Notes: generated by a model not told the origin, from the sequence alone. DNA of 58,331 nt from Zetaproteobacteria bacterium CG1_02_55_237 (GCA_001871195.1 MNXA01000045.1:45845-104175); one strand, 5' to 3'. Positions 27,138-55,565 are shown, counted from the stretch's first letter. Numbers and translations are program-made.

Positions 27138-27155
27138 GTTCGTTGGCAGGTGCGT

Positions 27156-31200: not shown

Positions 31201-31230
31201 GAGAATGAATCATGCTGGATGATGCTTGTA

Positions 31231-32289: not shown

Positions 32290-32298
32290 GGATGAAAA

Positions 32299-33459: not shown

Positions 33460-33475
33460 ATTTCACTTTACTTTT

Positions 33476-34246: not shown

Positions 34247-34883
34247 AGTTACCCTTATCGATTATGGGATGGGTAATCTACTTAGCGTTCGTAGGGCCAT
34301 GGAACACTGTGGCGCGACGGTGACCGTAACTGCTGAAGTCGATGCTATTCTTACTGCACCGCGGGTAGTATTGCCAGGGGTAGGGGCTTTTGCTGATGGT
34401 ATGGCTGAATTGCGAACCCTTGGGCTTGACGCCACAGTGCGCCAAGTCGCTGCAAAAGGAACTCCTCTCCTTGGGATTTGCTTGGGTATGCAGATGTTGC
34501 TCGACGAAAGTGAAGAGTTTGGGATCACTGATGGCCTTGGCCTGATACCGGGGCGGGTTGTTCCTGTTCCTAGAATATCTACGCAAGGAAAGCCCCAGAG
34601 GATTCCGCATATTGGCTGGAATGAGTTGGTTGTTCCTCCTCAAGGGTGTGTTGATTGGGTGGGGACAGTGCTTCACGAGGTCAGGCCAAATGATGCAGTT
34701 TACTTTGTTCACTCATTTATGGCTTGCCCAAGCAATCCTGCCCATCGTATTGCTGATTGTCTCTACGGAGGGCATCCAATAGCAGCAGCTATTGGAAAAG
34801 GGAATGTTTTTGGATGTCAGTTTCATCCTGAGAAGAGTGGCGAGATTGGGCTGAAAGTTTTGATGAGCTTTTTGTCACAGTGA
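34233..34883 (+). CDS. HisH-like glutamine amidotransferase subunit
   Basis: A 216-residue class I glutaminase with the complete triad: C83 (LLGICLGMQMLL), H198 and E200 (GCQFHPEKSG). The opening VTLIDYGMGNLLSVRRAM and VLPGVGAFADGM are HisH signatures. It should release ammonia from glutamine to the HisF-like partner, and through it to the sugar amidotransferase, as in the WbpG/HisH2/HisF2 sets of surface-glycan loci. It overlaps hisF and legF. Confidence 0.9.
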   Translation: MKPLEVTLIDYGMGNLLSVRRAMEHCGATVTVTAEVDAILTAPRVVLPGVGAFADGMAELRTLGLDATVRQVAAKGTPLLGICLGMQMLLDESEEFGITDGLGLIPGRVVPVPRISTQGKPQRIPHIGWNELVVPPQGCVDWVGTVLHEVRPNDAVYFVHSFMACPSNPAHRIADCLYGGHPIAAAIGKGNVFGCQFHPEKSGEIGLKVLMSFLSQ

Positions 34884-35587
34884 AGATATTGGCCCTTATT
34901 CCCGCTCGTGGTGGTTCTAAACGGATACCTAGGAAAAATATCAGACCCCTGTGTGGGAAGCCCTTGATTGCATGGAGCATCGATGTCGCCATGGATATTC
35001 CCGATATTTGTGATGTTCTGGTTTCGACTGATGATGCGGCCATAGCTAAGGTTGCCCAAGATGCTGGTGCCCTGTTGCCTTGGTTGCGTCCGGCTGAGCT
35101 TTCAACAGATACAGCTACCTCGGTGGATGTGGCACTACATGCTCTTGATTGGTATGAAGGGGAGAAGGGTGATGTGGATGGGGTGCTCTTGCTGCAGCCT
35201 ACTTCGCCATTTCGTAGCCGTGAAACAATTGTTCGTGGCATTAATCTTTTCCGGCAACATGATTATAGGTCAGTGGTCGGGGTTTCCCCTGCAGCATCAC
35301 ATCCAATGTGGTGTTTCAATATCGAGGATTCGGCGCTTAAGCCATACATGCCGGGTGGGCTGCATCTGCGATCCCAGGACCTGCCGCCCGCGTATGTGAT
35401 CAATGGGGCATTTTATTTACTTGCGCCTAGCGAGTTGCGCCGGAATCGATCATTCAATGCCGATAATACGCAGCCTCTTATTATCGATGGGCTGGAAGAA
35501 AGTATGGATATCGATACAGAACAGGACTGGAGAATTGCGGAGGTAATATGTCGGAGCCTGGGTGATCAAGACAGGTATTCGCGTTAA
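34880..35587 (+). CDS. legF: CMP-legionaminic acid synthase
   Basis: A 235-residue cytidylyltransferase from GTG 34880, overlapping the hisH stop by four bases. It shows the NeuA/LegF pattern ALIPARGGSKRIPRKNIRPLCGKPLIAWSID, then LLQPTSPFRSRETI, INGAFYLLAPSEL, and the C-terminal ESMDIDTEQDWRIAE. It activates the nonulosonic acid as the CMP sugar for transfer. It lacks the extra C-terminal domain of some NeuA proteins. This is the last Leg-pathway enzyme in the locus. Confidence 0.92.
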   Translation: MKILALIPARGGSKRIPRKNIRPLCGKPLIAWSIDVAMDIPDICDVLVSTDDAAIAKVAQDAGALLPWLRPAELSTDTATSVDVALHALDWYEGEKGDVDGVLLLQPTSPFRSRETIVRGINLFRQHDYRSVVGVSPAASHPMWCFNIEDSALKPYMPGGLHLRSQDLPPAYVINGAFYLLAPSELRRNRSFNADNTQPLIIDGLEESMDIDTEQDWRIAEVICRSLGDQDRYSR

Positions 35588-38659: not shown

Positions 38660-41557
38660 ATGTTGAAGCATAAGGGTTTGGATTTTCTTCGAAGAGGCAT
38701 CCGTGGTCAGGTGCTTACCGATAAAGTTTCCCTTGGTGTTTATGCTACAGATGCAAGCATTTATCAGTTCATGCCTTTGGCCGTTGTGCTTCCTCTCGAT
38801 CAGGATGATGTGATTCAGGTTGTTCGTTTATGTTCTGAGTACGGGCTTCCCATGCTTGCCAGAGGGGCGGGAACCAGCCTGACGGGCCAGTCCATTGGTG
38901 AAGCTGTGATTGTTGATATGTCAAAGTATCTTACCCGGATTGTAGAGTTGGATGTGGAGCATCGTTGGGTTCGTGTGGAACCCGGCGTTGTGTGCCAGGA
39001 GTTGAATGCCAGCCTACATGGCTCGGGGCTACATTTTGCGCCCGATCCGGCAACGGCAAACAGAGCCAATATCGGTGGGATGATTGCGAACAATGCTGCC
39101 GGCATGCGTTCGGTTATTTATGGCATGACAATAGATCATGTTCTGGAGCTAAAGCTTGTTCTTTCGACAGGCGAGGTTGTTGTTCTAGGGCCTCTTGAAA
39201 CAGATGAAGATCACGCCCTTCTTGCCAAAGATAATGGAAAATGCGGTGATATTTATCGTTCTCTAAAATGCGTAATTGAAAAGCATGGGGGCGAAATCGC
39301 GCGTCGATTCCCAAAGGTTACAAGGCGTTCTGGCGGGTATGCTCTGGATGCTTTTCTTGATCTATCATCTTGGAACATGGCAAAGATTATTGTTGGTAGT
39401 GAAGGGTCTCTTGGAATTGTTCTGGAGGCCAAGCTGAGGCTTGAGCCGCTGCCTAGAAAGAGAGCGCTTTGCATGGCCCATTTTGCCACTCTTCAGGGGG
39501 CTCTTTTGGCTGCAGAGCCTGTCGTGAGCCAAAATCCTTCGGCGGTGGAGTTGATAGATGGCTTGGTTCTGGGACAGGCAAAAGCGCATCCTCTGACTCG
39601 GCAGGCTTGCAATATCGTTGAAGGAGAACCTGCGGCCGTTCTGGTTGTTGAGGTTCAAGGAGCTGATGTCTCAGAAGTTGAGGCTCATGTGGCCAAAATT
39701 TCGAAAATGCTCGTCACTGATTGTGCCGCATATTCAGCGCCATTTGTCAGCGATGAAGAGGCCATGCGAAAAGTCTGGGAGATGCGATCAAGTGCTTTGG
39801 GCCTAATGACCACATTGCTCGGCACCAGAAAGCCCATACCTTATATTGAGGATGCTGCAGTTCCTTTGGGCTCTCTGGCAAATTATGTGGAAGATGTCCT
39901 GGCTGTGTGTGATCGATATGATCAGCCGGTATCCATGTTTGGTCACGTCAGTGTCGGATTAATGCACATCCGCCCATTGCACGATTTACATCGTCCCGAA
40001 GATATTTCAATGCTTCTGCGCATTCAGGAAGAGGTGTTTGAGCTTGTTGTGAAATATGGGGGCTCGTGGAGTGGCGAGCATGGCGACGGAATTGTACGGG
40101 GCGGATTCAATCAACGTTTCTTTGGTGAGGAGATATATTCTTCTTTTAAGGATATTAAGCATTTGTTCGATCCCAAAGGATTGATGAATCCCGGGAAAGT
40201 CATTGCCATATATCCGGTGGATGGGCACCTGCGCTTTGCTTATCAGGATTCGTTACAGGCGGAATTTAGAAGTAAATATAAATTCCGCCGTCAAGGAGGC
40301 TTGCTGAGCGCTGCAGAGCAATGTACCGGTGTCGGGGCCTGTCGTAAGCTGGGTAGTGGAACGATGTGCCCTTCCTATATGGTAACCAGAGATGAAGGGC
40401 ATAGTACCCGTGCCCGAGCCAATGCCGTGCGTTTGGCGATTACCGGACAGCTTGGGCATCATAGGCATGGTTTCACCAGCGATGCGTTGCTTAAGGTCTT
40501 CGATCTATGCCTGAGCTGTAAGGGATGTAATAGCGAGTGCCCCAACGGCATTGATATGAGCCGTATAAAATCAGAAGTTCTTTACCAGCATCAGGTATTG
40601 CATGGAAAGCGTATCCGCACCTTGCTCTTCGGGTCTATGGATTGGCTGGCGCCGAAATTGTCGGGTTATGGTGCATGGGCCGCAAACGGCTTGCTTCAAA
40701 GTGCGAGTATTCGTGCTGTGCTGGATCGATATTTAGGGATAGATAAGCGTCGTCATCTTCCCGTGTTTGCAAGTAAGTCACTGAGTAAATGGTTTGCTAA
40801 CAGGAAGCACAAGCGGGCAACCGGGCCCAAGGTTATCCTTTTTAACGATACATATCTTGAAGCTTTTCAGCCGCAGATTGGACGCGCAGCTGTTGAGGTG
40901 CTTGAAGCAGGCGGTTATCAGGTTGTGCTGGCGACTGTGGGTGGCAGCCAACGTTCCGCACTTTCTCTTGGCCTTCTCGATCAGGCAGTACATCGAGGTG
41001 CAGCCGCGTTCCGGGCATTGGCAAGTCTGTTGAACGATGGCGTACCAATACTGGTTTGTGAGCCAAGTTGTACAACGGCGCTTAAGGATGACCTTCCTGA
41101 TTTGTTGGAGGATGCCAGTTTAGCCAGTCGTGTTGCAGACAGTGTGGTTACCATTGAGCAGTTTCTTGAAAATGAATTATCTCAAGGCTCCTGTTCGCTT
41201 CCTTGGGTTGACCTGATAGATTCTCCGAGGTTTCTTGTTCACCATCATTGCCATCAGGCTAGCTTGGGAGGGGGAGGGGCGCTTCTTAAGCTCCTTTCTA
41301 ATATTCCCGGCGCAGTTGTTGAAGAGAGCAAAGCCGGTTGTTGTGGTATGGCAGGATCTTTTGGTTATGAGAAGGAGCATTATGATTTTTCTGTTGCAGT
41401 GGCAGAAAGAAAGTTAATCTCGAGACTGCGCAAGCTTGAAAGTGAAGTGCAAATTATTGCGAACGGGTTTTCTTGCAGGCATCAAATTCAGGATTTATCA
41501 GGAAGATTCGCCTCTCATGCAATAGAAGTTATTCGTAAGTATATAAAAACGAGCTAA
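38660..41557 (+). CDS. Fused FAD / Fe-S D-2-hydroxyacid dehydrogenase (YdiJ/GlcD-GlpC-like)
   Basis: A 965-residue protein. The N-terminal FAD_binding_4 domain (LARGAGTSLTGQSIG near residue 67; NIGGMIANNAAGMRS) and a FAD-oxidase C-terminal domain (about 265-530, with SGEHGDGIVRGGF) are followed by a ferredoxin-like part. Its clusters are C-x5-C...CPS near 555 and CLSCKGCNSECPNGID near 616. Two CCG domains end the protein (CEPSCTT, HHHCHQ, GCCGMAGSFGYE). This is the architecture of E. coli YdiJ-type D-2-hydroxyglutarate or D-lactate dehydrogenases. It is unusual in a glycan locus. It may recycle a 2-hydroxyacid made by the dehydrogenases downstream. Confidence 0.85.
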   Translation: MLKHKGLDFLRRGIRGQVLTDKVSLGVYATDASIYQFMPLAVVLPLDQDDVIQVVRLCSEYGLPMLARGAGTSLTGQSIGEAVIVDMSKYLTRIVELDVEHRWVRVEPGVVCQELNASLHGSGLHFAPDPATANRANIGGMIANNAAGMRSVIYGMTIDHVLELKLVLSTGEVVVLGPLETDEDHALLAKDNGKCGDIYRSLKCVIEKHGGEIARRFPKVTRRSGGYALDAFLDLSSWNMAKIIVGSEGSLGIVLEAKLRLEPLPRKRALCMAHFATLQGALLAAEPVVSQNPSAVELIDGLVLGQAKAHPLTRQACNIVEGEPAAVLVVEVQGADVSEVEAHVAKISKMLVTDCAAYSAPFVSDEEAMRKVWEMRSSALGLMTTLLGTRKPIPYIEDAAVPLGSLANYVEDVLAVCDRYDQPVSMFGHVSVGLMHIRPLHDLHRPEDISMLLRIQEEVFELVVKYGGSWSGEHGDGIVRGGFNQRFFGEEIYSSFKDIKHLFDPKGLMNPGKVIAIYPVDGHLRFAYQDSLQAEFRSKYKFRRQGGLLSAAEQCTGVGACRKLGSGTMCPSYMVTRDEGHSTRARANAVRLAITGQLGHHRHGFTSDALLKVFDLCLSCKGCNSECPNGIDMSRIKSEVLYQHQVLHGKRIRTLLFGSMDWLAPKLSGYGAWAANGLLQSASIRAVLDRYLGIDKRRHLPVFASKSLSKWFANRKHKRATGPKVILFNDTYLEAFQPQIGRAAVEVLEAGGYQVVLATVGGSQRSALSLGLLDQAVHRGAAAFRALASLLNDGVPILVCEPSCTTALKDDLPDLLEDASLASRVADSVVTIEQFLENELSQGSCSLPWVDLIDSPRFLVHHHCHQASLGGGGALLKLLSNIPGAVVEESKAGCCGMAGSFGYEKEHYDFSVAVAERKLISRLRKLESEVQIIANGFSCRHQIQDLSGRFASHAIEVIRKYIKTS

Positions 41558-41674
41558 TAATTATTAGGCTCGCCCCATTCTGGATATGATTGTCGAGAGA
41601 CATGGATCAGCATGGCATGTTGGGGAGGGGCTCGCTCCGGCATTCAACAGCAGTAGACAATACAGGTGGTAGAT

Positions 41675-42523
41675 ATGTTAGGACTCAGAACAAAAATTAT
41701 TAATATAGTAACGGCACTTCTCAAGGGATCTATAAGGCTGTTTGGTTTTGGAAGGGCCTCCCAGATTTCCGCACATCTTTCGCAGCAACTTGCGGCTGTG
41801 GTTGAGGTTCCTGCCAATGGGGGAAGTGTAAAGTTCTTCTGCCCGGCCCCCATGCCTGTCTGGAGAGCTCAAACCATGGTGACCAAGGAACCTGAAACCA
41901 TCGAGTGGATTGAGCAAATTCAAAAGGGCGAGGTTCTCTGGGATGTTGGTGCCAATGTCGGCGTTTTTTCTCTTTATGCCGCTTCGCGTGGGAAGCATGT
42001 GCTGGCTTTCGAACCTTCTCCAGCAAACTGTTATTTGCTTAGTCGCAATGTTGAGATTAATGGTTTTGACGATCTGGTATCATCCTATTGCATTGCATTC
42101 AATGATGAGACCTGTCTCGATTCTTTTTATATGAGCAATACAGAGTTGGGAGGAGCCCTGAGTAGTTTCGGCGAGGTCGTTGACTGGAAAGGTGAAAGCT
42201 ATGATGTGCAGTTTCGTCAAGCTATGTTGGGATTTGCGGTTGATGATTTTATCAAGCAGTTTAAGCCTCCTTTTCCTAACCATCTAAAAATTGATGTGGA
42301 TGGTATTGAGAAGAAAATTGTGTTGGGGGCTGAGAAAACCCTATCTGATAAGCGGTTGAAATCAGTGCTGATAGAGTTGAATATCAATCTGGATGAATGT
42401 GAGGAGATTGTGGCAATGATGAAGCAGCATGGGTTGATGCTGTTCAAACGAGCACATGAAGACACTTTCTACAGTGAGAATATGTCTTGCATTTATAACC
42501 ATATTTTTGTTCGTGAGTCTTGA
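41675..42523 (+). CDS. FkbM-family methyltransferase (first copy)
   Basis: From ATG 41675 (AGGTGG upstream) 282 residues; GTG 41666 is also possible. The SAM-binding motif I is VLWDVGANVGVFSLYAASRG and the acidic second motif is LAFEPSP, with NHLKIDVDGIEKKIVLGAEK as the FkbM C-terminal signature. An N-terminal extension of about 85 residues precedes the catalytic domain. FkbM enzymes O-methylate sugars and polyketides; here the substrate is presumably a glycan residue. Confidence 0.83.
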   Translation: MLGLRTKIINIVTALLKGSIRLFGFGRASQISAHLSQQLAAVVEVPANGGSVKFFCPAPMPVWRAQTMVTKEPETIEWIEQIQKGEVLWDVGANVGVFSLYAASRGKHVLAFEPSPANCYLLSRNVEINGFDDLVSSYCIAFNDETCLDSFYMSNTELGGALSSFGEVVDWKGESYDVQFRQAMLGFAVDDFIKQFKPPFPNHLKIDVDGIEKKIVLGAEKTLSDKRLKSVLIELNINLDECEEIVAMMKQHGLMLFKRAHEDTFYSENMSCIYNHIFVRES

Positions 42524-42535
42524 GGGATTCTGAAC

Positions 42536-43297
42536 ATGGTCTTCGATAATTTGGCATATTCCACTGAAGAGTTGGAGAGGTTTTTTAGTAAGAATAGGGT
42601 GGCTTGGAATCAGTTCTATGAGTCGGAGCGGGTTGTCCTTGAGCGTATTGCACCAGCATCTTGCTCAAGGGTGCTGGATGTCGGTTGTGGATGTGGGGGG
42701 CTTGGGCTTGCGCTGAAGGAGCGGTTTTCCGTCTCCGACTACACTGGTATAGAGATCAATCAAAAGGCTGTTGCCACGGCTCGAAAAATGAATCCTCATG
42801 CAAGGTTTCTTGAGGGGGATTTTCTTGCGATGAAGGATGAATTTTTAATTGGGGGGGCATTTGATCTGGTCTTTTCCCTGAGTTGCATCGATTGGAACAT
42901 CTCATTTGATGCGATGCTGCAGAAAGCTTGGTCAATGGTGAAACCCGGAGGTTCCTTTATTGCCAGTTTTAGGTTGACCTGCGAAGCAGGTGTGGATGAC
43001 ATCAATCGCTCTTATCAGTATATCAATTATGATGGCAAGATGGAGGGGGAGCTTGCATCTTATGTGGTTGTTAATGCAAGCAAAATACTAAGTAAATTTT
43101 TCTCTTTGGATGCTGATAAAATAACCGGTTACGGCTACAACGGTACCCCTGGTAAAACTGCTGTGACGCCTTATGGTGAACTGTGCTTTGCTGTTTTTGC
43201 CATTAGAAAAAAGATGGATGGAGATTTCATGGAGGTGGACCTGAGGCTTCCGAACGAAATTTTGCGATCTGTAGTGTGCGCTACCAAGGAGCACTGA
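42536..43297 (+). CDS. Class I SAM-dependent methyltransferase
   Basis: A 253-residue protein with motif I VLDVGCGCGGLGLALKE, an acidic motif II in YTGIEINQKAV, and FDLVFSLSCIDWNISFDAML, followed by WSMVKPGGSFIASF. These are typical of the Methyltransf_11/25 group. The substrate cannot be told. It sits 12 bases after the FkbM gene and one base before the radical SAM gene, so all three probably act on the same glycan. Confidence 0.82.
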   Translation: MVFDNLAYSTEELERFFSKNRVAWNQFYESERVVLERIAPASCSRVLDVGCGCGGLGLALKERFSVSDYTGIEINQKAVATARKMNPHARFLEGDFLAMKDEFLIGGAFDLVFSLSCIDWNISFDAMLQKAWSMVKPGGSFIASFRLTCEAGVDDINRSYQYINYDGKMEGELASYVVVNASKILSKFFSLDADKITGYGYNGTPGKTAVTPYGELCFAVFAIRKKMDGDFMEVDLRLPNEILRSVVCATKEH

Positions 43298-46200: not shown

Positions 46201-47283
46201 ATGGATAGAGTATTAATCCGGGCATCAATTTCTGAGCAATTGACTCGCCCCTTATGGGGAACTTCGGTACGTGCCGAGGATCGTCTTTGGCTGGATAAAA
46301 ATGAAAACATAGATTCTGATCTTTCTCAGGTGATCCGGGATGTTGTTCAAGGGCTGCCGAGCTACGCTTTTTCAACCTACCCCGAGATGGGTGTTTTGTA
46401 TGACAAGCTTTCCAACTTTCTGGGTGTGCCTGCGAATTTCCTGCTGGTATCTGCCGGCTCCGATGGGGTCATCCGTTCTGCATTTGAGGCATTTGTGGAT
46501 CCCGGGGACGTTGTTCTGTATGCAGGGCCGACCTTCGCCATGTACGAGGTTTATTGCAAGATATACGGGGCTGTCGAGTTGGTGCAGGAATATACGGCAT
46601 CGCAGGATGGCCCTTTGCTTGATATGGGCGCTTTCTTATCTTTAGTTAGAACCCATAGGCCAAAGATGGTCTGTCTTCCGAATCCGAACAGTCCGACAGG
46701 CACTGTCATTTCTGACGCAGAAATGAAACGGTTGCTTGATTGTACGCGTGATTCAGGCTCTTTGTTGATGATTGATGAGGCTTACTATCCCTTCTATGAG
46801 AATACGGTTCTTCAATACGTGAACGATTATGACAATCTGCTGGTGATAAGAAGTACTGGGAAAGCATGGGGTATGGCCGGTTTTAGAATTGGCTATGGTG
46901 TGGCAGATGCGAAGGTTGCAGAGGCCCTTCACAAGGTAAGGCCCATGTATGAGGCTAATACCGTTGGCGTGATGGTGCTTGGAGAAATGATTGATCGGTA
47001 TGACGAGGTGCTGAAGTCTGTTGATCGGTTGAATCAGGCGAAGAAAGCTTTTCTTTCTTTCGCTGATCGGCATGATTTCAAGTGGTTCCCAACCTATGGG
47101 AATTTTGTCCATATCAACTTGGGGCCACGTGGTGATAAAATTGATGCTGCGCTGCAGACCTGTGTTTATTACAGGCGGGCTATAAATCATCCGAGCCTGT
47201 TAGGTTATAGCCGATTTTCATTGGCTCCGACTGTCGAAATGGAACGTATTATGAAAGTAATCGAGGGTGAACTGAATGACTAG
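46201..47283 (+). CDS. HisC-like PLP aminotransferase
   Basis: A 360-residue fold-type I aminotransferase resembling histidinol-phosphate aminotransferase. Visible are LWLDKNENIDSDLS, FLLVSAGSDGVIRSAFEAF, CLPNPNSPTGTVIS, LMIDEAYYPFY, and the PLP lysine in RSTGKAWGMAGFRIGYG. No other histidine genes surround it. It opens a run of eight overlapping or closely spaced sugar/cyclitol-type genes, so it probably aminates a keto intermediate of that pathway. Its stop overlaps the next start by eight bases. Confidence 0.83.
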   Translation: MDRVLIRASISEQLTRPLWGTSVRAEDRLWLDKNENIDSDLSQVIRDVVQGLPSYAFSTYPEMGVLYDKLSNFLGVPANFLLVSAGSDGVIRSAFEAFVDPGDVVLYAGPTFAMYEVYCKIYGAVELVQEYTASQDGPLLDMGAFLSLVRTHRPKMVCLPNPNSPTGTVISDAEMKRLLDCTRDSGSLLMIDEAYYPFYENTVLQYVNDYDNLLVIRSTGKAWGMAGFRIGYGVADAKVAEALHKVRPMYEANTVGVMVLGEMIDRYDEVLKSVDRLNQAKKAFLSFADRHDFKWFPTYGNFVHINLGPRGDKIDAALQTCVYYRRAINHPSLLGYSRFSLAPTVEMERIMKVIEGELND

Positions 47284-48382
47284 CAATACGGTTGAGAGCC
47301 CAATACGCATTGCTGTAATCGGCTGTGGAAGGATAGCCGGGCATCATTGCCGCTCTATCAGCATCAATTCCGAGCTTGAATTGACATCTGTCTGCGATTT
47401 GGATGAAGCCAAGGCGGCAGCCTATGGCGTCGAGTTTAACGTCCCGTATTTCACCAGTTATCACGAAATGCTTCGGCAGTGTCAGGTTGATGTCGTGGCT
47501 GTTATCACACCTTCCGGTATGCACTTTGAGCATGCAATGGATGTGCTTGAAACGTATGGTAAGCACATCATTGTTGAGAAGCCGACCTTTATGCGCCTGA
47601 GCCATTTGGATGAAGTATATGCCCTGGCTGAAGAGAAGGGTGTTAAGGTGTTTCCTGTGTTTCAGAATAGGTACAACAAGGCTGTCCAGCGGGTAAAAAA
47701 AGGCATTGAGAGAGATGAATTGGGATCTCCGCGAGTCGTCAGCATTCGAGTGCGGTGGTGCAGGCCACAAAGGTATTACGATCTCTCCGCATGGCGCGGG
47801 ACTTTTTCGCATGATGGCGGTGCGTTGACCAATCAGGGTATTCACCATCTTGATTTGTTGCGGTATCTGTTTGGCGAAGTAAAGGGTGTTTGTACCAAGA
47901 TGGCCACGCTTGGCGCTGATATCGAGGTGGAAGATGCCGCTGTCGGTGTTTTTAACTTTGCTTCAGGTGCGGTTGGTACGCTGGAAGTGACGACCTCTGC
48001 AAGACCTGATGATTTTGAAGCCTCTATTTCGATTGTGGGTTCGAAAGGGTTGGCTCAGATTGGCGGCATTGCGGTCAATGAACTGCAAATATATACGCCG
48101 GATCCTCAAGCCTGTGCTGTCAGCAGCGAAGATTTCTCCGGTTGTGTCTATGGACACGGGCATGAGAATATATACAGGAATCTGGCCGATGTGATTCTTA
48201 GGGGCGGAGGGCATCTTGTCAGGCAGAAGGATTGCGCAAGCAGTCTTGCTTTGTTGCACGCGGCCTATCTTTCCGATGAGGTTGTTGGTTGGGTGGATGT
48301 AGGGGCATTTGGAGAATCAACTCGTTTGGGGCGGCCGGATGATCTGATATCCGACCTCTACAGAACAGCAAAAAGTGGGTAA
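47276..48382 (+). CDS. Gfo/Idh/MocA-family oxidoreductase (first copy)
   Basis: A 368-residue NAD(P)-dependent oxidoreductase: Rossmann motif IRIAVIGCGRIAGHHC, the EKP motif in HIIVEKPTFMRLS, and GGALTNQGIHHLDLLRYLFG with the catalytic-type histidine pair. Members include inositol dehydrogenases and WbpB-type nucleotide-sugar 3-dehydrogenases. The C-terminal half is long and ends beyond the usual beta-sheet domain. It is flanked by an aminotransferase and a cytidylyltransferase, consistent with a 3-keto intermediate that is then aminated. Confidence 0.85.
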   Translation: MTSNTVESPIRIAVIGCGRIAGHHCRSISINSELELTSVCDLDEAKAAAYGVEFNVPYFTSYHEMLRQCQVDVVAVITPSGMHFEHAMDVLETYGKHIIVEKPTFMRLSHLDEVYALAEEKGVKVFPVFQNRYNKAVQRVKKGIERDELGSPRVVSIRVRWCRPQRYYDLSAWRGTFSHDGGALTNQGIHHLDLLRYLFGEVKGVCTKMATLGADIEVEDAAVGVFNFASGAVGTLEVTTSARPDDFEASISIVGSKGLAQIGGIAVNELQIYTPDPQACAVSSEDFSGCVYGHGHENIYRNLADVILRGGGHLVRQKDCASSLALLHAAYLSDEVVGWVDVGAFGESTRLGRPDDLISDLYRTAKSG

Positions 48383-49177
48383 ATGGGTGAGGCAAACGTG
48401 ACTAAAATCATTGGTATAATACCGGCGCGAATGGGCTCCAGCAGATTTTACGGAAAGCCACTACACCCAATCCTTGGGATGCCTATGCTGGAGCATGTGT
48501 ATAGAAGGGCTTCCATGTATGAAGGTTGGGCTGCGCTTTGTATCGCAACCTGCGATCAGGAAATTTTTGATTTTTGCGAGAAGAAAGGTTTCCCGTGTGT
48601 CATGACCTCATCAACTCATACAAGGGCGCTGGAGAGGGTCCATGAAGCCGTCCTTAATTTGGGACTGAACCCGGCGGAAGATGATCTAGTTCTGAACGTA
48701 CAGGGCGATGAGCCCATGATGCTTCCTGAGATGATTGATGTAACGACACGACCGATGCTTGACCACAAGGATGTCGGCGGCACTGTTTTGGCGATGGATA
48801 TTGTTGATGAAGTTCAATACCGTGATCCGAATTCGCTGAAGATCATTCATGACCTGAATGGTGATATCCTCTATACATCGCGCAGCCCCATTCCGTATGC
48901 CAAAAAGTTTTCAAGGGAAATAGGTGCAAAAAGAATCTATGGGATTTTTGGGTTCAAATGGCATTTCCTGAAAAAGTTCAATGAGCTTCCGGAATCGCCT
49001 TTGGAACTTGTGGAGTCCTGTGACAGCAACCGTCTTTATGACAACGGGTTGACCCAGAGGGTCGCTCCATACCCATACATGCTTTCATTTGCGGTTGATT
49101 GCCCGGAAGATATCAAGCTTGTTGAAGAGCATATGGTGAATGACCCACTGTACAAGCTTTACGCAAGAGCAGCGTAA
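48383..49177 (+). CDS. KdsB-like CMP-sugar cytidylyltransferase
   Basis: A 264-residue protein directly after the preceding stop. GTG 48398, with GGTGAGG upstream, is an alternative start. It follows 3-deoxy-manno-octulosonate cytidylyltransferase closely in plan: IIGIIPARMGSSRFYGKPLH, LVLNVQGDEPMMLPEMI, YTSRSPIPYAKK, and YGIFGFKWHFLKKF. KdsB normally has R-Y-A-S-T-R-L-P-G-K-P-L, so the SRFYGKPL variant and the altered C-terminal ESCDSNRLYDNG point to another substrate. It is probably specific to a locus-encoded ulosonic acid or related sugar. Confidence 0.82.
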   Translation: MGEANVTKIIGIIPARMGSSRFYGKPLHPILGMPMLEHVYRRASMYEGWAALCIATCDQEIFDFCEKKGFPCVMTSSTHTRALERVHEAVLNLGLNPAEDDLVLNVQGDEPMMLPEMIDVTTRPMLDHKDVGGTVLAMDIVDEVQYRDPNSLKIIHDLNGDILYTSRSPIPYAKKFSREIGAKRIYGIFGFKWHFLKKFNELPESPLELVESCDSNRLYDNGLTQRVAPYPYMLSFAVDCPEDIKLVEEHMVNDPLYKLYARAA

Positions 49178-49178
49178 T

Positions 49179-50225
49179 ATGAGCACATTGCGTGTCGGGA
49201 TAGCTGGCTATGGGGTTGTAGGAAAGCGCCGCAGAGCTGTTGTCGATAGCCGTCCGGACATGAAAACAGTAGCTGTATGCGATCGTTTTTTTGAATCGGG
49301 CGGGAGAATGGATGATGGTATAGTATTCCATTCGGATTATCGCACTTTGCTTGAGGAGAATCTGGATGTGCTTTTCGTCTGTCTCACAAATGATGTGGCT
49401 GCTGAGGTTACCATTGCCGGATTGAGGAAAGGGCTGCACGTGTTTTGCGAGAAGCCTCCAGGTCGTGATTTGGCTGATATTCAGGCTGTTGTTCAGACAG
49501 AAAAGGAATGTCCGGGCCTTAAGTTGATGTATGGTTTTAATCATCGCCATCATGAATCGGTCAGGGATGCCCTTGAGATTGTCCAATCCGGTGAGCTCGG
49601 ACATATCATCAATCTGAAGGGTGTCTATGGGAAATCGAAGTTGATTACATTCAATCAACCCGATTGGCGTACCAAAAGGAGCATCGCCGGTGGCGGGGTT
49701 CTGCTTGATCAGGGAATTCATCTTGTGGATTTGATGCGCCTGTTCTCCGGTGGCGATTTTGAGGAAGTGCACAGCTTTATTTCCAATAGCTACTGGAACT
49801 ATGATATTGAAGACAATGCGTATGCTTTGATGAAGACAAAATGCGGTGTTGTCGGAATGCTGCATTCGTCTGCGACACAATGGAGACACAGGTTTCACTT
49901 GGATATCACTCTTGAAAGGGGGGGGGTTATTCTGAGCGGCATACTTTCTGGATCAAAGAGCTACGGTGCCGAGACACTTGCTGTGATCAGAGCCAATCCC
50001 GATGACAACGGTGACCCAAAGGAGCAAATTACCCGATATAACAATGATCCATCTTGGGAAAATGAGATTTCCGTGTTTGCTGATGCAATCAAGCATGGCA
50101 GGGTGATTCATTCGGGATCTTCTCTGGAGGCGCTGAAAACCATGCAGTTGGTGTATAAAATTTATTGTGCTGACGCCCAATGGAAGGAAACATATAAATT
50201 GACGGATTGCGTTGAAGAGTTATGA
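49179..50225 (+). CDS. Gfo/Idh/MocA-family oxidoreductase (second copy)
   Basis: From ATG 49179, one base after the preceding stop, 348 residues. An upstream in-frame TTG/GTG extension into the cytidylyltransferase gene is unlikely. Motifs are LRVGIAGYGVVGKRRRAV, HVFCEKPPGRDLAD and GGGVLLDQGIHLVDLMRLF. It is only distantly similar to the copy at 47276, so the two probably catalyse different redox steps. It overlaps the SIS isomerase gene by four bases. Confidence 0.84.
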   Translation: MSTLRVGIAGYGVVGKRRRAVVDSRPDMKTVAVCDRFFESGGRMDDGIVFHSDYRTLLEENLDVLFVCLTNDVAAEVTIAGLRKGLHVFCEKPPGRDLADIQAVVQTEKECPGLKLMYGFNHRHHESVRDALEIVQSGELGHIINLKGVYGKSKLITFNQPDWRTKRSIAGGGVLLDQGIHLVDLMRLFSGGDFEEVHSFISNSYWNYDIEDNAYALMKTKCGVVGMLHSSATQWRHRFHLDITLERGGVILSGILSGSKSYGAETLAVIRANPDDNGDPKEQITRYNNDPSWENEISVFADAIKHGRVIHSGSSLEALKTMQLVYKIYCADAQWKETYKLTDCVEEL

Positions 50226-50857
50226 ATAATATCAATGAAATGCTGAATGCAAGTTGTGGTGTAGGCGCATTTTCTAAACGTTATTTTTCCTATCTCTCCA
50301 AAGTGCTGGATGCCATTGATGTGTCCAGTATTGAGGAGTTCGTTGAAATCCTGCTGGATGCCAGAGAGCGAGGGGCAAGTGTGTTTTTCATTGGAAATGG
50401 TGGCAGTGCATCTACAGCCAGTCATTTTGTGAATGATATTGGTGTCGGAACCCGTTCCTGGGATAAACCTTTCTGTGTCATGAGCCTGAGCGATAATAGT
50501 TCTGTTGTAACAGCTATAGGTAACGACAGGGGATATGAGAATATCTTTGTTGAACAGTTAAGGCTCTATCTGAAACCCGCGGATGTGGTGGTCATGATTT
50601 CAGCATCTGGTAATTCGCCAAATCTTATAAAAGCTCTGGATTATGCAAACGATATCGGAGCAATGACGGTTGGTTTGACCTCGTTTGATGGTGGGGTGGT
50701 AAAGAGCCGATCAAAATGCAATATCCACGTTCCTGCCGAAAAGGGTGAATATGGTCCTGCAGAAGATGCTCATCTGATTATTGATCATCTTGTCAGCGCC
50801 TATTTGATGCATCATGTGAAAAACGAGCTTCTTCAGGGCGGGAAGGAAGGCGCTTGA
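50222..50857 (+). CDS. SIS-domain sugar isomerase (GmhA-like)
   Basis: A 211-residue sugar-isomerase-domain protein: FFIGNGGSASTASHFVNDIG, VVMISASGNSPNLIKALDYA, and the GmhA-type histidine in EDAHLIIDHLVSAYL. GmhA converts sedoheptulose 7-phosphate to D-glycero-D-manno-heptose 7-phosphate. The catalytic glutamate of E. coli GmhA (HFAEEL) is replaced here by aspartate (HFVNDI). Whether it acts on sedoheptulose 7-phosphate, or holds it for the downstream cyclase, is open. No heptose kinase or epimerase gene is nearby. Confidence 0.78.
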   Translation: MNNINEMLNASCGVGAFSKRYFSYLSKVLDAIDVSSIEEFVEILLDARERGASVFFIGNGGSASTASHFVNDIGVGTRSWDKPFCVMSLSDNSSVVTAIGNDRGYENIFVEQLRLYLKPADVVVMISASGNSPNLIKALDYANDIGAMTVGLTSFDGGVVKSRSKCNIHVPAEKGEYGPAEDAHLIIDHLVSAYLMHHVKNELLQGGKEGA

Positions 50858-50866
50858 GGAATTGCC

Positions 50867-51586
50867 GTGATTGAATTATCTGGCAGAAAGGTTCTGGTTA
50901 CGGGGGGGAGCAGAGGGATTGGTTTCTCGATTGCCCGAAAGTTCGTCGAATCAGCAGCCGATGTTGTCGTAACTGGAACGCGCGTTGATGGGAAGGGTCC
51001 CTTGGGTGCGGAATACCGGATGTTTAATTTTTCAGATTACGATTCCCTGAATGCGTGTGCAGAGTTTGTTGCAGACTGGTCTCCCGATATCCTGATCAAC
51101 AACGCCGGAATCAATAAGATTTCTCCATTTGAAAAAATAGCTGTGCAGGAATTCGAGATCATTCAACAGGTGAATCTGGAGGCTCCGTTCCGATTGAGCC
51201 AAGCTGCTGTTAACGGGATGAAAACCAGAGGATGGGGGCGAATTGTCAATGTGTCCTCAATATGGGGGAAGATCAGCAGGGAATTTCGTGCTTCATATTC
51301 TGCATCCAAATTTGCGCTCGACGGGATGAGTGCTGCGCTTGCTGCTGAAGTCACCCGGTATGGGGTTCTGGTGAACTGTGTGGCACCCGGCTTTATAGAT
51401 ACCGAATTGACACGCAGGGTGCTTGGTGATGATGGCGTCGTTAAACAGACTGAGGCAATTCCAGCCCGTCGTCTTGGTACTCCGGATGAAGTGGCAACGT
51501 TTGTTGTCTGGCTAGCAGGGCCCGATAATACATACATCAGTGGCCAGAATATTGCGATTGATGGGGGATTTACCAGTGCCGGATAA
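50867..51586 (+). CDS. Short-chain dehydrogenase/reductase
   Basis: A 239-residue classical SDR with VLVTGGSRGIGFSIARKF at the N-terminus, NNAGINKISPFEKI, the serine of VNVSSIWG, and the catalytic YSASK. It ends GQNIAIDGGFTSAG as FabG-like enzymes do. It lies between the isomerase and the cyclase, so reduction or oxidation of a sugar or cyclitol is more likely than fatty-acid synthesis. It ends one base before the cyclase start. Confidence 0.83.
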   Translation: MIELSGRKVLVTGGSRGIGFSIARKFVESAADVVVTGTRVDGKGPLGAEYRMFNFSDYDSLNACAEFVADWSPDILINNAGINKISPFEKIAVQEFEIIQQVNLEAPFRLSQAAVNGMKTRGWGRIVNVSSIWGKISREFRASYSASKFALDGMSAALAAEVTRYGVLVNCVAPGFIDTELTRRVLGDDGVVKQTEAIPARRLGTPDEVATFVVWLAGPDNTYISGQNIAIDGGFTSAG

Positions 51587-51587
51587 A

Positions 51588-52652
51588 ATGATGGAAATTC
51601 AATCGCATAAAGGCCCATATCGGGTTTATTTTGATGATAATGCGCTTGAAAAGCTTGATTCAGCAAATCATCAGGGTTTGCATTATATCATCGATCGAAA
51701 GGTGGCCGCGCTTTATCGTGAACAGATGGAACATATCCTTTCATCCGAATCTGTCTTATTGATAGATGCAACGGAAGATAACAAGGCGCTGGATGTGTTT
51801 CCTGCGTATGTGCAACACCTAGTTGCAAAACGAATCAGGAAGGATCATCGGCTTTGTGCAATCGGTGGAGGGGTTACTCAGGATATCACCTGCTTTCTGG
51901 CTGCGACGATGCTTCGCGGGGTTGAATGGGTTTTCTATCCTACAACTCTTCTGGCTCAAACAGATTCATGTATCGGTTCCAAAAGCTCTATCAATGCAGG
52001 ATCTGCAAAAAACATTCTTGGAACATTTACACCACCGGAAAAGGTGTTCATCAGTACCAGATTCTTATCCACCCTTGATCCTGTCGATGTTCGCTCAGGT
52101 GTTGGTGAGATGGTGAAAGTTCATGTAATTGATGGACCCGCATCGTTTGATTCCTTGGCATCCAGTTTCGACAACTTATTTGAAGACCCGCTGGTGATGA
52201 TGCGGTTTATCATGAAGTCCCTTGAGATTAAGCAGGCGTATATTGAAAAAGATGAATTCGATATCGGTCCGCGGCGGGTGTTTAACTATGGGCACAGTTT
52301 TGGTCATGCGATAGAGGCCGCGACGCACTTTGCTGTACCTCATGGGATTGCCGTCACAATCGGTGCCGATATGGCGAACTATGTTGCCTGGAAGTTAGGG
52401 GTGGGAAGTGAGGCCAATTTTCACCGCATGCACCTTGTGCTGAAACGGAATTATTGTGGTTTCGAGTCTATTGAAATTCCGTTTGAACCATTCATTACTG
52501 CCATCGGAAAGGATAAGAAGAATGTAGGAATGAATCATCTGACATTGATTCTCCCTGATCACGATGGGCGGGTGGGAATTTCACAATATGAGAATAACGA
52601 ACAGTTTCGTGAGATCTGTGTGTCATATCTGGATGGGCAGCGCTTTCAATGA
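51588..52652 (+). CDS. Dehydroquinate-synthase-like sugar phosphate cyclase
   Basis: Tandem ATGs at 51588 and 51591 begin a protein of 354 or 353 residues. Family hallmarks are AIGGGVTQDITCFLAATMLRG, FYPTTLLAQTDSCIGSKSSI, SAKNILGTFTPPEKVF, and the zinc-site FNYGHSFGHAIEAATH and VPHGIAVTIG. AroB normally reads GGGVVGD and GGKTGVN; the GVTQD and GSKSSIN variants put it outside true AroB. Known relatives make valiolones, 2-deoxy-scyllo-inosose or gadusol precursors, some from sedoheptulose 7-phosphate. It should cyclise a sugar phosphate in this pathway; product unknown. Confidence 0.8.
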   Translation: MMEIQSHKGPYRVYFDDNALEKLDSANHQGLHYIIDRKVAALYREQMEHILSSESVLLIDATEDNKALDVFPAYVQHLVAKRIRKDHRLCAIGGGVTQDITCFLAATMLRGVEWVFYPTTLLAQTDSCIGSKSSINAGSAKNILGTFTPPEKVFISTRFLSTLDPVDVRSGVGEMVKVHVIDGPASFDSLASSFDNLFEDPLVMMRFIMKSLEIKQAYIEKDEFDIGPRRVFNYGHSFGHAIEAATHFAVPHGIAVTIGADMANYVAWKLGVGSEANFHRMHLVLKRNYCGFESIEIPFEPFITAIGKDKKNVGMNHLTLILPDHDGRVGISQYENNEQFREICVSYLDGQRFQ

Positions 52653-53581
52653 TCTCCAATTGTAAGGTCGCGGTAACGTCGCGTTCATTTTCTTTGAATC
52701 CTGTATTAAGAGAAGAGCTTCTTGAACGTTATCCCAACACAAAATTCAACGATGAAGGCCGTTCGCTGTCTGGAAAAGACCTGATCGAATTTCTTTGGGG
52801 GGCCGAGAAGGCGATTACCGCTCTGGAGCGTATTGATGAGGATGTAGTTGCGGCGCTTCCTGAGCTTAAGGTGATTGGCAAATACGGTGTCGGCACCGAT
52901 ATGATTGACAAGGCGGCGCTACGAAAACATGGCGTCCGCTTTGGCTGGACTGGCGGAGTGAACCGGCGGTCAGTTGCCGAGCTGACCATAGCTATGATGA
53001 TTTCTTTGCTAAGGCATCTTCCTTATGCTCGTGACGAGGTTCTAGCCGGGCGCTGGAGACAGATTTGGGGGCACGAGCTCGGTCAGCAACAGGTGGGCAT
53101 ACTGGGTTGCGGCCATGTAGGGAAGGAGGTTGCGCGCCTGTTGAAAGCGTTCGGGTGCGAAGTGATTGCTCATGATCTGCTCGATTTCCCCGAGTTTTAT
53201 GCCCAACATCAAATCAGGCCAGTGTCTTTTGATGAGTTGGTGACGGAGTCTGATATTCTTACAGTTCATGTGCCTCTGGACGCATCGACCCGCGGGATGT
53301 TGGGTGAAGAACAGTTGCGACGGATGAAGCCCGGGGCCATGCTTATTAATGTTGCCCGCGGTGGCATCGTGGATGAAAGGGTTCTGAAACAGCTGTTGCA
53401 GGATGGGCATATCGGTGGCGCAGCTTTTGATGTTTTCGAGGTTGAACCTCCCGATGATATGGAATTACTCAGCCTCCCCAATTTCATGGTAACTCCCCAT
53501 ATCGGTGGAAGTTCGAAAGAAGCTATCCTAGCCATGGGGCGGGCTGCCATCGACGGCCTGGACCATAATGAAATCCCCTGA
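52649..53581 (+). CDS. D-isomer-specific 2-hydroxyacid dehydrogenase (SerA-like)
   Basis: A 310-residue protein whose ATG overlaps the cyclase stop. The NAD-binding motif is VGILGCGHVGKEVARLL. The catalytic Arg, Glu and His are in NVARGGIVDE, VFEVEPPDD and TPHIGGSSKEA. It resembles the catalytic part of phosphoglycerate dehydrogenase without the ACT domain. Serine synthesis is unlikely at this position. Reduction of a 2-keto acid such as 2-oxoglutarate, or a sugar-acid step, fits better, but the substrate is not known. Confidence 0.84.
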   Translation: MISNCKVAVTSRSFSLNPVLREELLERYPNTKFNDEGRSLSGKDLIEFLWGAEKAITALERIDEDVVAALPELKVIGKYGVGTDMIDKAALRKHGVRFGWTGGVNRRSVAELTIAMMISLLRHLPYARDEVLAGRWRQIWGHELGQQQVGILGCGHVGKEVARLLKAFGCEVIAHDLLDFPEFYAQHQIRPVSFDELVTESDILTVHVPLDASTRGMLGEEQLRRMKPGAMLINVARGGIVDERVLKQLLQDGHIGGAAFDVFEVEPPDDMELLSLPNFMVTPHIGGSSKEAILAMGRAAIDGLDHNEIP

Positions 53582-53666
53582 TGCGGGCCGGGAAGGCGTA
53601 AGCATATCCGGACTCGACAATAGATATGCATACCATTGGTAGCGTCCCGTGGCGGGTAAGAAGGCT

Positions 53667-55565
53667 ATGACGCGTTGTCACGTGCTTTGGTCAGTCGCCG
53701 AATCGGTTCCCGATGATGCATCCCTGATTCTCAGTTTTCTCAATCCGATGGATGAGCATGAGCTGTCGCAACAGCTCTATTCCTGCGATTTGATATCGAT
53801 GGCCAAGGTGATGGATGGGGTGAAGGATAAGGCCTATGAGCATTATCTGGAGATTGTTGCCGATATCGGCATGTTCCCCTTGTCGGATGGCAGAAGCTTG
53901 CGTTCGCATATGCATGGCAGCGGAAAGGTCAGCCAATGGTGGTATCATCCCGTGGCATTCAGGAATTCGGAAAGCGATCCGACCTATACCCACCTGCTTG
54001 CAGTATTGGCCATAGCGAAGGTTGCCAATGAGCGCGGTGTGAAGGTCCTGAATCTGCATCAACCGCCGCATGGTGTGGCGGAAGTGTTGCAGTCGTGTTT
54101 CACTGTCGTGGCACATGGTAGTGTAAGGAGTGGCTCTTGGGCCGGGACGGTCCGCAGGGTTCTCGGGCGTATCCGCTATTCCCTGAGAGTTGTTCAGGAG
54201 AAGCGGGCTTGCGATAAAATCAGGAAAAAGGCCACGCCGGGATGCTTTGATGTGGCGCTTCAGGGGTTCTGGGATTGGAGTGTACTGCCTGATCCAAAAG
54301 ATTCCGGAAGGTTTGTCGACAAGTATTTCGGCGCACTGCCGGCACAGCTCGAGGCCCACGGGAAAAAAGTGGGGTACTGGTGCTGGTACGATCCCTGGAC
54401 AGGCGCTACGGAGCAACCACGTAGCCATCACGAGGTGCTTGCTCCTGTGTGCGGGCGACAGGATATCGTATTGCTGCAATCCCTGTTGAGATATCGTGAT
54501 ATTCTCAGCGCCTTCATGGATGCGAGAGCAATAGTGAATGTACTTCGTGCGGTGCGGGATAAATCTTTTCGTGCCCTCTTTAAAGCCGGAAAACTTGATT
54601 TGTTTCCGCTTTTCAGGACGGCTCTTATCGAGGGCTCGGTGGGTATGGCCATCGTGCAGTGCCAGCTATTCGAGAGGGCAACCGCCAGAGCCAGCGAACA
54701 AACGCAAAGTCGCCTGTTAATCACCTTTCTTGAACACTTTCCCCAGTCCAGAGCGATGTATGCGGCGTTGCAGGGAAGTGAAACGCGTGTCTGGAATGTG
54801 CAACACGGTTGCTACAATCAGGGAAAGACATACGGAGCCCTGCATCCAACAAAAGAATTTGCCATTCAAGCCGATGGTGAATCAGTGCCGCATGTGGACC
54901 GTATCTGCGTGATGGGGGAGTTGGGAGCCAAGGTTTTCGGTGGTTGCGGATATGACGCGAGCCAGGTGCTGGCGACAGGATCATGCCGGTATGACCATGT
55001 CAAAGTGACTGCTTCCGGCGATTTGAAAGATGTCGTGTCCGGATTACGGGCGGGCTCCAAGCTTAGAATTCTGGTTGCGACAAGTGTGCCGGCACATTCG
55101 GATTTTGCTCTGGTACAGGCTGCCGTTGCTGCGATTCACCCACTAGCCGATCAGGTAAGTTTACGACTTCGAACACATCCCTTTGGGCGTATGGATTCGC
55201 TTGCCGAATTCGCTTCAGTTGCTGGCAGTTTTGAGCTTAGTCGAGGTGATTTGGCAGGGGATATTGTCTGGGCTGACCTGGTGCTGATCAGTCAGTCTAC
55301 AGTCGGTGAAGAGGCGCTTCTGGCCGGAAAGGACGTATGGCAATTCCGCTTTCCGAACCCCGACCAGTCATCGCTTGCCGAAGTGGTCCGTATTCCGCGT
55401 TTCTATTCTGTTACGGAATTGCGCCAGGGGATTGAGCAACTCCTGTTCGGGGAGGTGCAGACTCCCAAGCCTAGTCCACAACAAGTGTATCGGGCGCTTT
55501 TTCAGGTGGGCGATGAACTTCCTTCAAAAGCGATTGCTAATAAAGTATGTCTTGAATTCCGTTGA
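53667..55565 (+). CDS. Uncharacterised large surface-carbohydrate protein, GT-B-like C-terminus
   Basis: ATG 53667 gives 632 residues; GTG 53649 would add six. I do not recognise the family with certainty. No signal peptide or clear transmembrane helix is visible. The N-terminal half (RCHVLWSVAESVPDD, CWYDPWTG near 240) is unlike common enzymes. The second half has RVWNVQHGCYNQGKTYGALH, then LRLRTHPFGRMDSL, then LVLISQSTVGEEALLAGKDVW. This HP...QST pattern resembles the protein at 37422 and GT-B transferases. A role in glycan assembly is inferred from that and from the locus. Confidence 0.5.
   Translation: MTRCHVLWSVAESVPDDASLILSFLNPMDEHELSQQLYSCDLISMAKVMDGVKDKAYEHYLEIVADIGMFPLSDGRSLRSHMHGSGKVSQWWYHPVAFRNSESDPTYTHLLAVLAIAKVANERGVKVLNLHQPPHGVAEVLQSCFTVVAHGSVRSGSWAGTVRRVLGRIRYSLRVVQEKRACDKIRKKATPGCFDVALQGFWDWSVLPDPKDSGRFVDKYFGALPAQLEAHGKKVGYWCWYDPWTGATEQPRSHHEVLAPVCGRQDIVLLQSLLRYRDILSAFMDARAIVNVLRAVRDKSFRALFKAGKLDLFPLFRTALIEGSVGMAIVQCQLFERATARASEQTQSRLLITFLEHFPQSRAMYAALQGSETRVWNVQHGCYNQGKTYGALHPTKEFAIQADGESVPHVDRICVMGELGAKVFGGCGYDASQVLATGSCRYDHVKVTASGDLKDVVSGLRAGSKLRILVATSVPAHSDFALVQAAVAAIHPLADQVSLRLRTHPFGRMDSLAEFASVAGSFELSRGDLAGDIVWADLVLISQSTVGEEALLAGKDVWQFRFPNPDQSSLAEVVRIPRFYSVTELRQGIEQLLFGEVQTPKPSPQQVYRALFQVGDELPSKAIANKVCLEFR

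What the first reader, a model, noticed from the sequence alone, without database searches (positions are those of the whole stretch)
46201..53581. Eight-gene module that may make a CMP-activated amino-cyclitol or unusual ulosonic acid
Eight genes run in one direction with overlaps or gaps mostly under ten bases: HisC-like aminotransferase, Gfo/Idh, KdsB-like cytidylyltransferase, second Gfo/Idh, GmhA-like isomerase, SDR, AroB-like cyclase and SerA-like dehydrogenase. GmhA acts on sedoheptulose 7-phosphate, and several AroB-like cyclases (2-epi-5-epi-valiolone synthase type) use the same compound. Cyclisation, oxidation, transamination and CMP activation would then give a CMP-amino-cyclitol. 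I know of no described pathway with this gene set. An alternative is an amino-Kdo-like sugar, as in Shewanella Kdo8N synthesis. The product is inference; the gene content is read from sequence.
Basis: partly seen in the sequence, partly recalled or inferred. Interest (0 to 1): 0.82.

Follow-up and report, generated by a model that had tools for sequence, protein, structure and literature searches.

The report
CMP-activated carbocyclic acid gene module
Eight adjacent surface-glycan genes recur together in unrelated bacteria and probably make an unusual ring-shaped, amino-bearing acid building block, using a distinct relative of the shikimate-pathway enzyme AroB in the place where sister gene clusters use a phosphatase.

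Summary
In detail: eight same-strand genes lie at 46201-53581, and they recur as a set. Seven other loci (Alpha-, Beta- and unclassified Proteobacteria, Bacteroidota) have all eight and three more have seven. The cyclase is not DHQS: it scores over the cut-off for TIGR04425 and forms its own clade (100/100), and a separate AroB exists in this genome and in all 20 other carrier genomes tested. It is not an EEVS either. It keeps all 11 DAHP-pocket residues of S. aureus DHQS, four of which are changed in the sedoheptulose-7-phosphate cyclases examined. The substrate is therefore more likely a carboxylated, DAHP-like 2-ulosonate phosphate than sedoheptulose 7-phosphate. New finding: in 40 loci with the same KdsB clade, cyclase and HAD phosphatase never co-occur (11 cyclase, 25 HAD, 0 both). 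Across cyclase loci, HisC+GfoA never meets an HpcH aldolase. This suggests a GfoB-SerA-cytidylyltransferase core with exchangeable parts. Best reading: SIS, Gfo/Idh and SerA build an ulosonate phosphate; the cyclase closes a carbocycle instead of simple dephosphorylation; SDR, GfoA and HisC tailor it; KdsB adds CMP. The conserved module is near certain. The product is inference.

The parts
46201..47283 (+). HisC-like PLP aminotransferase (360 aa); tailoring cassette with GfoA and KdsB(h)
   Evidence: Pfam Aminotran_1_2, TIGR01141 hisC only 196.8 of 276.6 bits; found together with GfoA in 10 of 11 HisC-bearing loci that have GfoB and SerA, never with HpcH
47276..48382 (+). GfoA: Gfo/Idh dehydrogenase, nearest solved structures 3q2k/3q2i (210 bits; from my own knowledge WlbA, a nucleotide-sugar-acid 3-dehydrogenase)
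   Evidence: linked to KdsB(h) in both cyclase and HAD variants
48383..49177 (+). KdsB-like cytidylyltransferase of a separate clade (h), second copy beside a canonical KdsB
   Evidence: metal/CTP motifs kept, canonical LEQLR replaced by CDSNR in 54 of 54
49140..50225 (+). GfoB: Gfo/Idh dehydrogenase, part of the near-invariant core (likely start 49179)
50222..50857 (+). SIS phosphosugar isomerase, GmhA-like but with Zn ligand E65 changed to Asp
50867..51586 (+). SDR reductase, constant partner of the cyclase (74 of 79 bacterial and 76 of 79 viral loci)
51540..52652 (+). Sugar phosphate cyclase of TIGR04425 (likely start 51588)
   Evidence: TIGR04425 472.9 bits (cut-off 400), aroB 242 (cut-off 305); tree; DAHP pocket kept; AF2 pLDDT 95.3, nearest folds DHQS
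52649..53581 (+). SerA-like D-2-hydroxyacid dehydrogenase, part of the core; catalytic Arg237/Glu266/His284
   Evidence: triad conserved in 65 of 65; fused to HAD in L221
42536..43297 (+). SAM methyltransferase: likely ninth partner of the HisC variant
   Evidence: 42-59% relatives mostly in HisC-variant loci; 7 of 12 HisC-variant loci against 0 of 67 others
41666..42523 (+). FkbM-type methyltransferase; relatives (67% in L054, 44-49% in L228/L229/L232) sit in module loci
53649..55565 (+). Surface-carbohydrate protein weakly matching TIGR04326 (O-antigen); 48% relative near the module in L054

Best explanation
The module is a mobile surface-glycan cassette that makes a CMP-activated carboxylated ring compound. 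Proposed route (order and substrates inferred): the SIS isomerase supplies an aldose phosphate, plausibly a heptose 7-phosphate; a Gfo/Idh enzyme oxidises C1 to an aldonate phosphate; the SerA-like enzyme oxidises the 2-hydroxy group, giving a 2-ulosonate phosphate, that is a 3-hydroxy relative of DAHP. In sister clusters a HAD phosphatase then removes the phosphate. Here the AroB-like cyclase instead eliminates it and closes a carbocycle, and the adjacent SDR reduces the ketone, giving a quinate-like 'carba-ulosonic' acid. GfoA (WlbA-like) and HisC oxidise and transaminate one ring position. The dedicated KdsB couples CMP to the carbon that bears the hydroxyl and carboxylate, for transfer into the polysaccharide. 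Shown by computation: gene set, conservation, distinct cyclase clade, DAHP-type pocket, cyclase/HAD exclusion, HisC-GfoA/HpcH exclusion, dedicated KdsB clade. Inferred: every substrate and the product.
For: Conserved gene set across phyla. Cyclase in its own 63-row clade apart from DHQS and S7P cyclases, with another AroB-family gene elsewhere in all 20 carrier genomes tested and in this genome. All 11 DAHP-pocket residues listed for S. aureus DHQS in PMC6262012 are present in the window enzyme; 10 of 11 are kept in essentially all of 160 relatives (the eleventh is mostly Lys or His), whereas four S7P cyclases have M, D/A, P and V/A/S at four of these sites. SerA triad in 65 of 65, which implies a 2-hydroxy/2-keto acid step. 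In 40 loci fetched only through KdsB(h): 11 cyclase without HAD, 25 HAD without cyclase, 0 both, 4 neither; none of the 79 cyclase loci has that HAD. In simple cases HAD sits exactly between KdsB and SerA, where SDR-cyclase sits in related loci. L221 keeps HisC-GfoA-GfoB-KdsB and has a HAD-SerA fusion in place of SDR-cyclase. KdsB(h) is a separate clade with an altered motif, present beside a canonical KdsB.
Against: No enzyme of this cyclase clade has a known activity, and no product is known. CMP transfer of a true carbocycle lacks the usual anomeric activation. The Rhodospirillales loci closest to the window mostly lack SIS, so SIS is not essential or is supplied elsewhere. GfoA occurs without HisC in HAD loci, so its role is not only amination. 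The HpcH variant keeps SIS, GfoB and SerA, which is hard to explain if these alone make the keto acid. The cyclase/HAD exclusion rests on only two or three independent switches on the KdsB tree. The canonical KdsB comparison used three sequences.
Confidence: 0.38

Rival explanations
1. Two products from one locus: HisC-GfoA-KdsB makes a CMP-amino-ulosonic acid (amino-Kdo-like, as in Shewanella Kdo8N) from an ordinary ulosonic acid, while GfoB-SIS-SDR-cyclase-SerA makes a separate cyclitol.
For: HisC-GfoA-KdsB and the cyclase core can sit in swapped order (L047, L048, L052, L062); the cyclase core occurs with HpcH-KdsB(p) or NeuA-like enzymes instead; L221 shows HisC-GfoA-GfoB-KdsB-SerA without cyclase.
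Against: GfoB and SerA stay with KdsB(h) in loci without the cyclase, so the proposed split of the genes does not hold. If the cyclase arm were independent, the HAD should coexist with it, but 0 of 36 informative loci have both.
Confidence: 0.27
2. One reading: an EEVS-type cyclase turns sedoheptulose 7-phosphate into a valiolone-like C7 cyclitol, which becomes a CMP-aminocyclitol.
For: A GmhA-like SIS gene is in the module; DHQS homologues that use S7P exist; HisC and dehydrogenases could aminate a cyclitol.
Against: The cyclase is outside the S7P-cyclase clade and keeps Lys, Asn, His and Lys where EEVS/DDGS have Met, Asp/Ala, Pro and small residues. SIS has E65 changed to Asp in 51 of 51. 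The SerA step has no obvious role on a neutral cyclitol.
Confidence: 0.12
3. The cyclase is a DAHP cyclase (a DHQS in activity) recruited to make a quinate- or shikimate-like residue: DAHP to dehydroquinate, then SDR to quinate, with the other genes decorating it.
For: All 11 DAHP-pocket residues kept; nearest folds are DHQS; the SDR is nearly always adjacent, even in viruses that lack the other partners, so a common host metabolite such as DAHP could suffice.
Against: Another AroB-family gene is present in every carrier genome tested, so a second enzyme of identical activity would be redundant. TIGR04425 members differ consistently from DHQS and are monophyletic. It leaves SIS, GfoB and SerA unexplained.
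Confidence: 0.17

Closest known systems
TIGR04425, AroB-related putative sugar phosphate phospholyase (cyclizing), NCBIfam hypothetical equivalog
   Same: The window cyclase is a clear member (472.9 bits, cut-off 400).
   Different: The family has only a hypothetical name; I found no described substrate, product or pathway, and the identifier occurs in no paper of the library searched.
Kdo pathway KdsA-KdsC(HAD)-KdsB and CMP-Kdo synthetases
   Same: Sister clusters have a HAD phosphatase plus a KdsB-like enzyme; catalytic CTP/metal motifs are kept.
   Different: Separate KdsB clade with an altered motif; no KdsA-like synthase in the module; cyclase and SDR replace the HAD.
[quoted passage not shown]
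   Same: Sugar phosphate cyclase superfamily and zinc ligands.
   Different: Different clade and a different set of pocket residues.
3-dehydroquinate synthase (AroB)
   Same: Fold (TM about 0.85) and the whole DAHP pocket.
   Different: Monophyletic outside DHQS, below the aroB cut-off, an extra copy in every genome tested, in glycan loci.
Shewanella 8-amino-Kdo (KdnA/KdnB) synthesis (own knowledge)
   Same: Dehydrogenase, aminotransferase and KdsB relative acting together on an ulosonic acid.
   Different: Dehydrogenase is Gfo/Idh and aminotransferase is HisC-like here, with a cyclase, SIS, SDR and SerA in addition.

Membership tests
TIGR04425 cyclase family | Whole-protein score over the curated cut-off of 400 bits | tested here: met
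   472.9 bits
TIGR04425 cyclase family | SDR partner gene as in most relatives found here | tested here: met
   74 of 79 bacterial, 76 of 79 viral loci; present in the window
3-dehydroquinate synthase (AroB) | Score over the TIGR01357 cut-off and grouping with DHQS | tested here: not met
   242 of 305 bits; separate clade, 100/100
3-dehydroquinate synthase (AroB) | DAHP-binding pocket residues | tested here: met
   11 of 11 in the window enzyme (residues from PMC6262012)
3-dehydroquinate synthase (AroB) | Turnover of DAHP to dehydroquinate | not testable with these tools
   Needs enzyme assay
Sedoheptulose 7-phosphate cyclases (EEVS type) | Grouping with EEVS/DDGS in a superfamily tree | tested here: not met
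   three reference sequences only
Sedoheptulose 7-phosphate cyclases (EEVS type) | Pocket residues Met, Asp/Ala, Pro, Val/Ala/Ser at four sites | tested here: not met
   Window has Lys, Asn, His, Lys
CMP-Kdo synthetase KdsB | CTP_transf_3 domain with metal and CTP motifs | tested here: met
   141.6 bits; QGDEP, GKP and SR motifs kept
CMP-Kdo synthetase KdsB | Score over the TIGR00466 equivalog cut-off | tested here: not met
   141.1 of 155.2 bits, although the looser subfamily PRK05450.1-5 is passed (214.6 of 193)
GmhA heptose isomerase | Zinc ligands H61, E65, H183 and phosphate-binding serines | tested here: not met
   E65 is Asp in 51 of 51 relatives; His and serines kept; residue roles from PMC5387315
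D-2-hydroxyacid dehydrogenases | Catalytic Arg, Glu, His triad | tested here: met
   65 of 65
Kdo8N pathway | KdnA/KdnB orthologues | not tested
   No KdnA/KdnB sequence was compared directly

The most novel reading that the evidence does not exclude
A previously undescribed biosynthetic logic in which a dehydroquinate-synthase-like cyclase replaces the phosphatase of a CMP-ulosonic-acid pathway, so that bacteria (and, through a cyclase-SDR pair, phages) put true carbocyclic sugar-acid analogues into surface glycans.
Probability: 0.33. Interest if true: 0.85.

Novelty: new variant of a known kind. Interest (0 to 1): 0.62.

Why it matters
Sugar phosphate cyclases are known from the shikimate pathway and antibiotics. 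This clade sits in cell-surface glycan loci of many bacterial phyla and in viral contigs, with no assigned reaction. If the cyclase substitutes for a phosphatase in a CMP-ulosonic acid pathway, there is a widespread class of carbocyclic or amino-carbocyclic acids in bacterial surface polysaccharides that glycan analysis may have missed, and a cytidylyltransferase activity that has not been described. The cyclase/HAD and HisC-GfoA/HpcH swaps give a direct, testable gene-to-chemistry map.

Tried and rejected
Single-sequence scan of genome contigs with the cyclase found nothing because its peptide patterns were poor; the alignment A1 solved this. K250 of A. nidulans DHQS was first taken to be the Lys of the DEKE motif, which suggested a Lys-to-Phe change; the S. 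aureus numbering (K221 lies before that motif) showed the pocket Lys is kept. An apparent cyclase-SerA fusion in L217 was a frame artefact. The idea that HisC-GfoA-KdsB is an independent three-gene cassette was dropped after one search showed GfoB and SerA staying with KdsB(h) without HisC. Bradyrhizose as product was considered and dropped: its genes are reported as largely unknown and centre on a dTDP-glucose dehydratase (PMC4743980). The Ebo operon cyclase EboD is a similar case of an orphan cyclase but was not compared by sequence. Plasmid and phage record searches gave only AroB-level hits. Paper searches for this pathway found nothing.

Full report
OBSERVATION. The eight genes are real, at the stated coordinates and on one strand, and Pfam supports each description. 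The window lies at G000:C17:45845-104175 of a 2.33-Mb genome of 54 contigs. The eight genes stand in a long surface-glycan locus. From translated ORFs and Pfam, upstream genes 26112-35587 look like a legionaminic-acid-type set with NeuB and a NeuA-like cytidylyltransferase, followed by an ABC transporter, methyltransferases and a radical-SAM protein; downstream genes include a weak TIGR04326 surface-carbohydrate match and a glycosyltransferase.

CONSERVATION. An alignment of four cyclases found 79 bacterial loci in named genomes and 79 viral contigs. In the bacterial loci an SDR accompanies the cyclase in 74, SerA is present in 67, GfoB in 65, SIS in 51. All eight genes occur in seven loci, including Pedobacter yonginense and a SAR116 genome, and seven of eight in three Rhodospirillales. 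Gene order differs between these, so selection and not mere ancestry keeps them together.

THE CYCLASE. It scores 472.9 bits against TIGR04425 (cut-off 400) and 242 against aroB (cut-off 305). In a maximum-likelihood tree the 63 module and viral cyclases form one side of a 100/100 branch, apart from eight DHQS and three S7P cyclases. This genome has a separate AroB, and all 20 other carrier genomes tested have a second AroB-family gene. The AlphaFold model has mean pLDDT 95.3 and its nearest solved folds are DHQS, with 2-deoxy-scyllo-inosose synthase close behind. PMC6262012 lists eleven S. aureus DHQS residues of the DAHP pocket. All eleven are present in the window enzyme; ten are kept in essentially all 81 bacterial and 79 viral relatives and the eleventh (K181) is mostly Lys or His. 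Four S7P cyclases have Met at K221, Asp or Ala at N239, Pro at H246 and Val, Ala or Ser at K314. I infer a DAHP-like, carboxylated substrate. This is a sequence argument, not an assay.

EXCHANGEABLE CASSETTES. Among 61 loci with GfoB and SerA, HisC occurs in 11, ten of them with GfoA, and none of the 11 has the HpcH/HpaI aldolase that 31 of the other 50 have (Fisher p = 1.3e-4; family check). On the cyclase tree the label changes seven times, at least four forced by well-supported branches, so the swap has happened repeatedly. The KdsB of HisC-GfoA loci is 50-63% identical to the window protein and that of HpcH loci 35-43%. The two form separate groups on the KdsB tree (the canonical references are long branches, so their place is unsure). 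Most carriers tested also have a second KdsB (17 of 20; this genome).

CYCLASE VERSUS PHOSPHATASE. To avoid selecting on the cyclase I searched the order of Magnetospirillum with the window KdsB: 59 of 317 genomes have this clade. Forty loci were read. Eleven have the cyclase without the HAD phosphatase, 25 the HAD without the cyclase, none both, four neither; the four include short contigs (Fisher p = 6e-7). In simple cases the HAD lies between KdsB and SerA, the place of SDR-cyclase. In L221 HisC-GfoA-GfoB-KdsB are kept and a 557-residue HAD-SerA protein replaces SDR-cyclase and SerA. Because neighbours share history, the KdsB tree shows only two or three independent switches, so the p-value overstates the evidence; the nested L221 case is the most telling.

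OTHER ENZYMES. SerA keeps its Arg-Glu-His triad in 65 of 65, so a 2-hydroxy/2-keto acid step is likely. GfoA is closest to 3q2k/3q2i (210 and 207 bits, next best 86), which from my own knowledge are WlbA, a 3-dehydrogenase of a nucleotide sugar acid that works ahead of an aminotransferase. GfoB has only weak structural relatives. SIS keeps the phosphate-binding serines but has Asp for the GmhA zinc ligand E65 in all 51 (role from PMC5387315). KdsB(h) keeps the metal and CTP motifs but reads CDSNR where three canonical sequences read LEQLR. A methyltransferase at 42536-43297 has relatives in 7 of 12 HisC-variant loci and none of the 67 others.

INTERPRETATION. The constant GfoB-SerA-cytidylyltransferase set, the SerA chemistry, the DAHP-type pocket and the cyclase/HAD replacement fit one scheme: a 2-ulosonate phosphate is made, then either dephosphorylated or cyclised with loss of phosphate, tailored and CMP-activated. 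In the second case the product would be a carba-analogue of an ulosonic acid. With HisC present, an amino derivative is likely. The least certain points are the identity of the sugar phosphate, the role of HpcH in the alternative cassette, and whether KdsB(h) truly acts on a carbocycle. Rivals are given with their probabilities.

Noticed in passing
L100-L178 (viral contigs, IMG/VR): 79 viral contigs carry this cyclase clade, 76 with an SDR and 63 with a thiamine-diphosphate enzyme, mostly without GfoB, SIS or SerA: a virus-borne minimal cyclase-SDR pair.
   Followed up: partly
L221:6716-8386: A HAD phosphatase and the SerA-like dehydrogenase are one 557-residue ORF, in a locus that otherwise has HisC, GfoA, GfoB and KdsB but no cyclase.
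   Followed up: yes
window 42536-43297: A SAM methyltransferase whose relatives occur only in HisC-variant loci among the 79 cyclase loci.
   Followed up: partly
window 26112-35587: A legionaminic-acid-type gene set (NeuB, NeuC-like, NeuD-like, HisH/HisF-like and NeuA-like genes) in the same glycan locus, so the glycan may hold two kinds of CMP-activated acids.
   Followed up: no
window 38660-41557: A 965-residue FAD-linked oxidase with 4Fe-4S domain (glycolate or D-2-hydroxyacid oxidase type) lies inside the polysaccharide locus; 35% and 29% relatives lie in L041 and L065.
   Followed up: partly
L067, L070, L089-L092 and similar: Bacteroidota versions of the cyclase core carry a NeuA-like enzyme, an HpcH aldolase, a PF04199 'putative cyclase' and YhcH/DUF386, a different product branch.
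   Followed up: partly
L233-L254: HAD-variant KdsB(h) loci often hold a NodU-type carbamoyltransferase-like protein, an SGNH-type protein and MBOAT proteins between GfoB and KdsB, named by eye from sequence.
   Followed up: no
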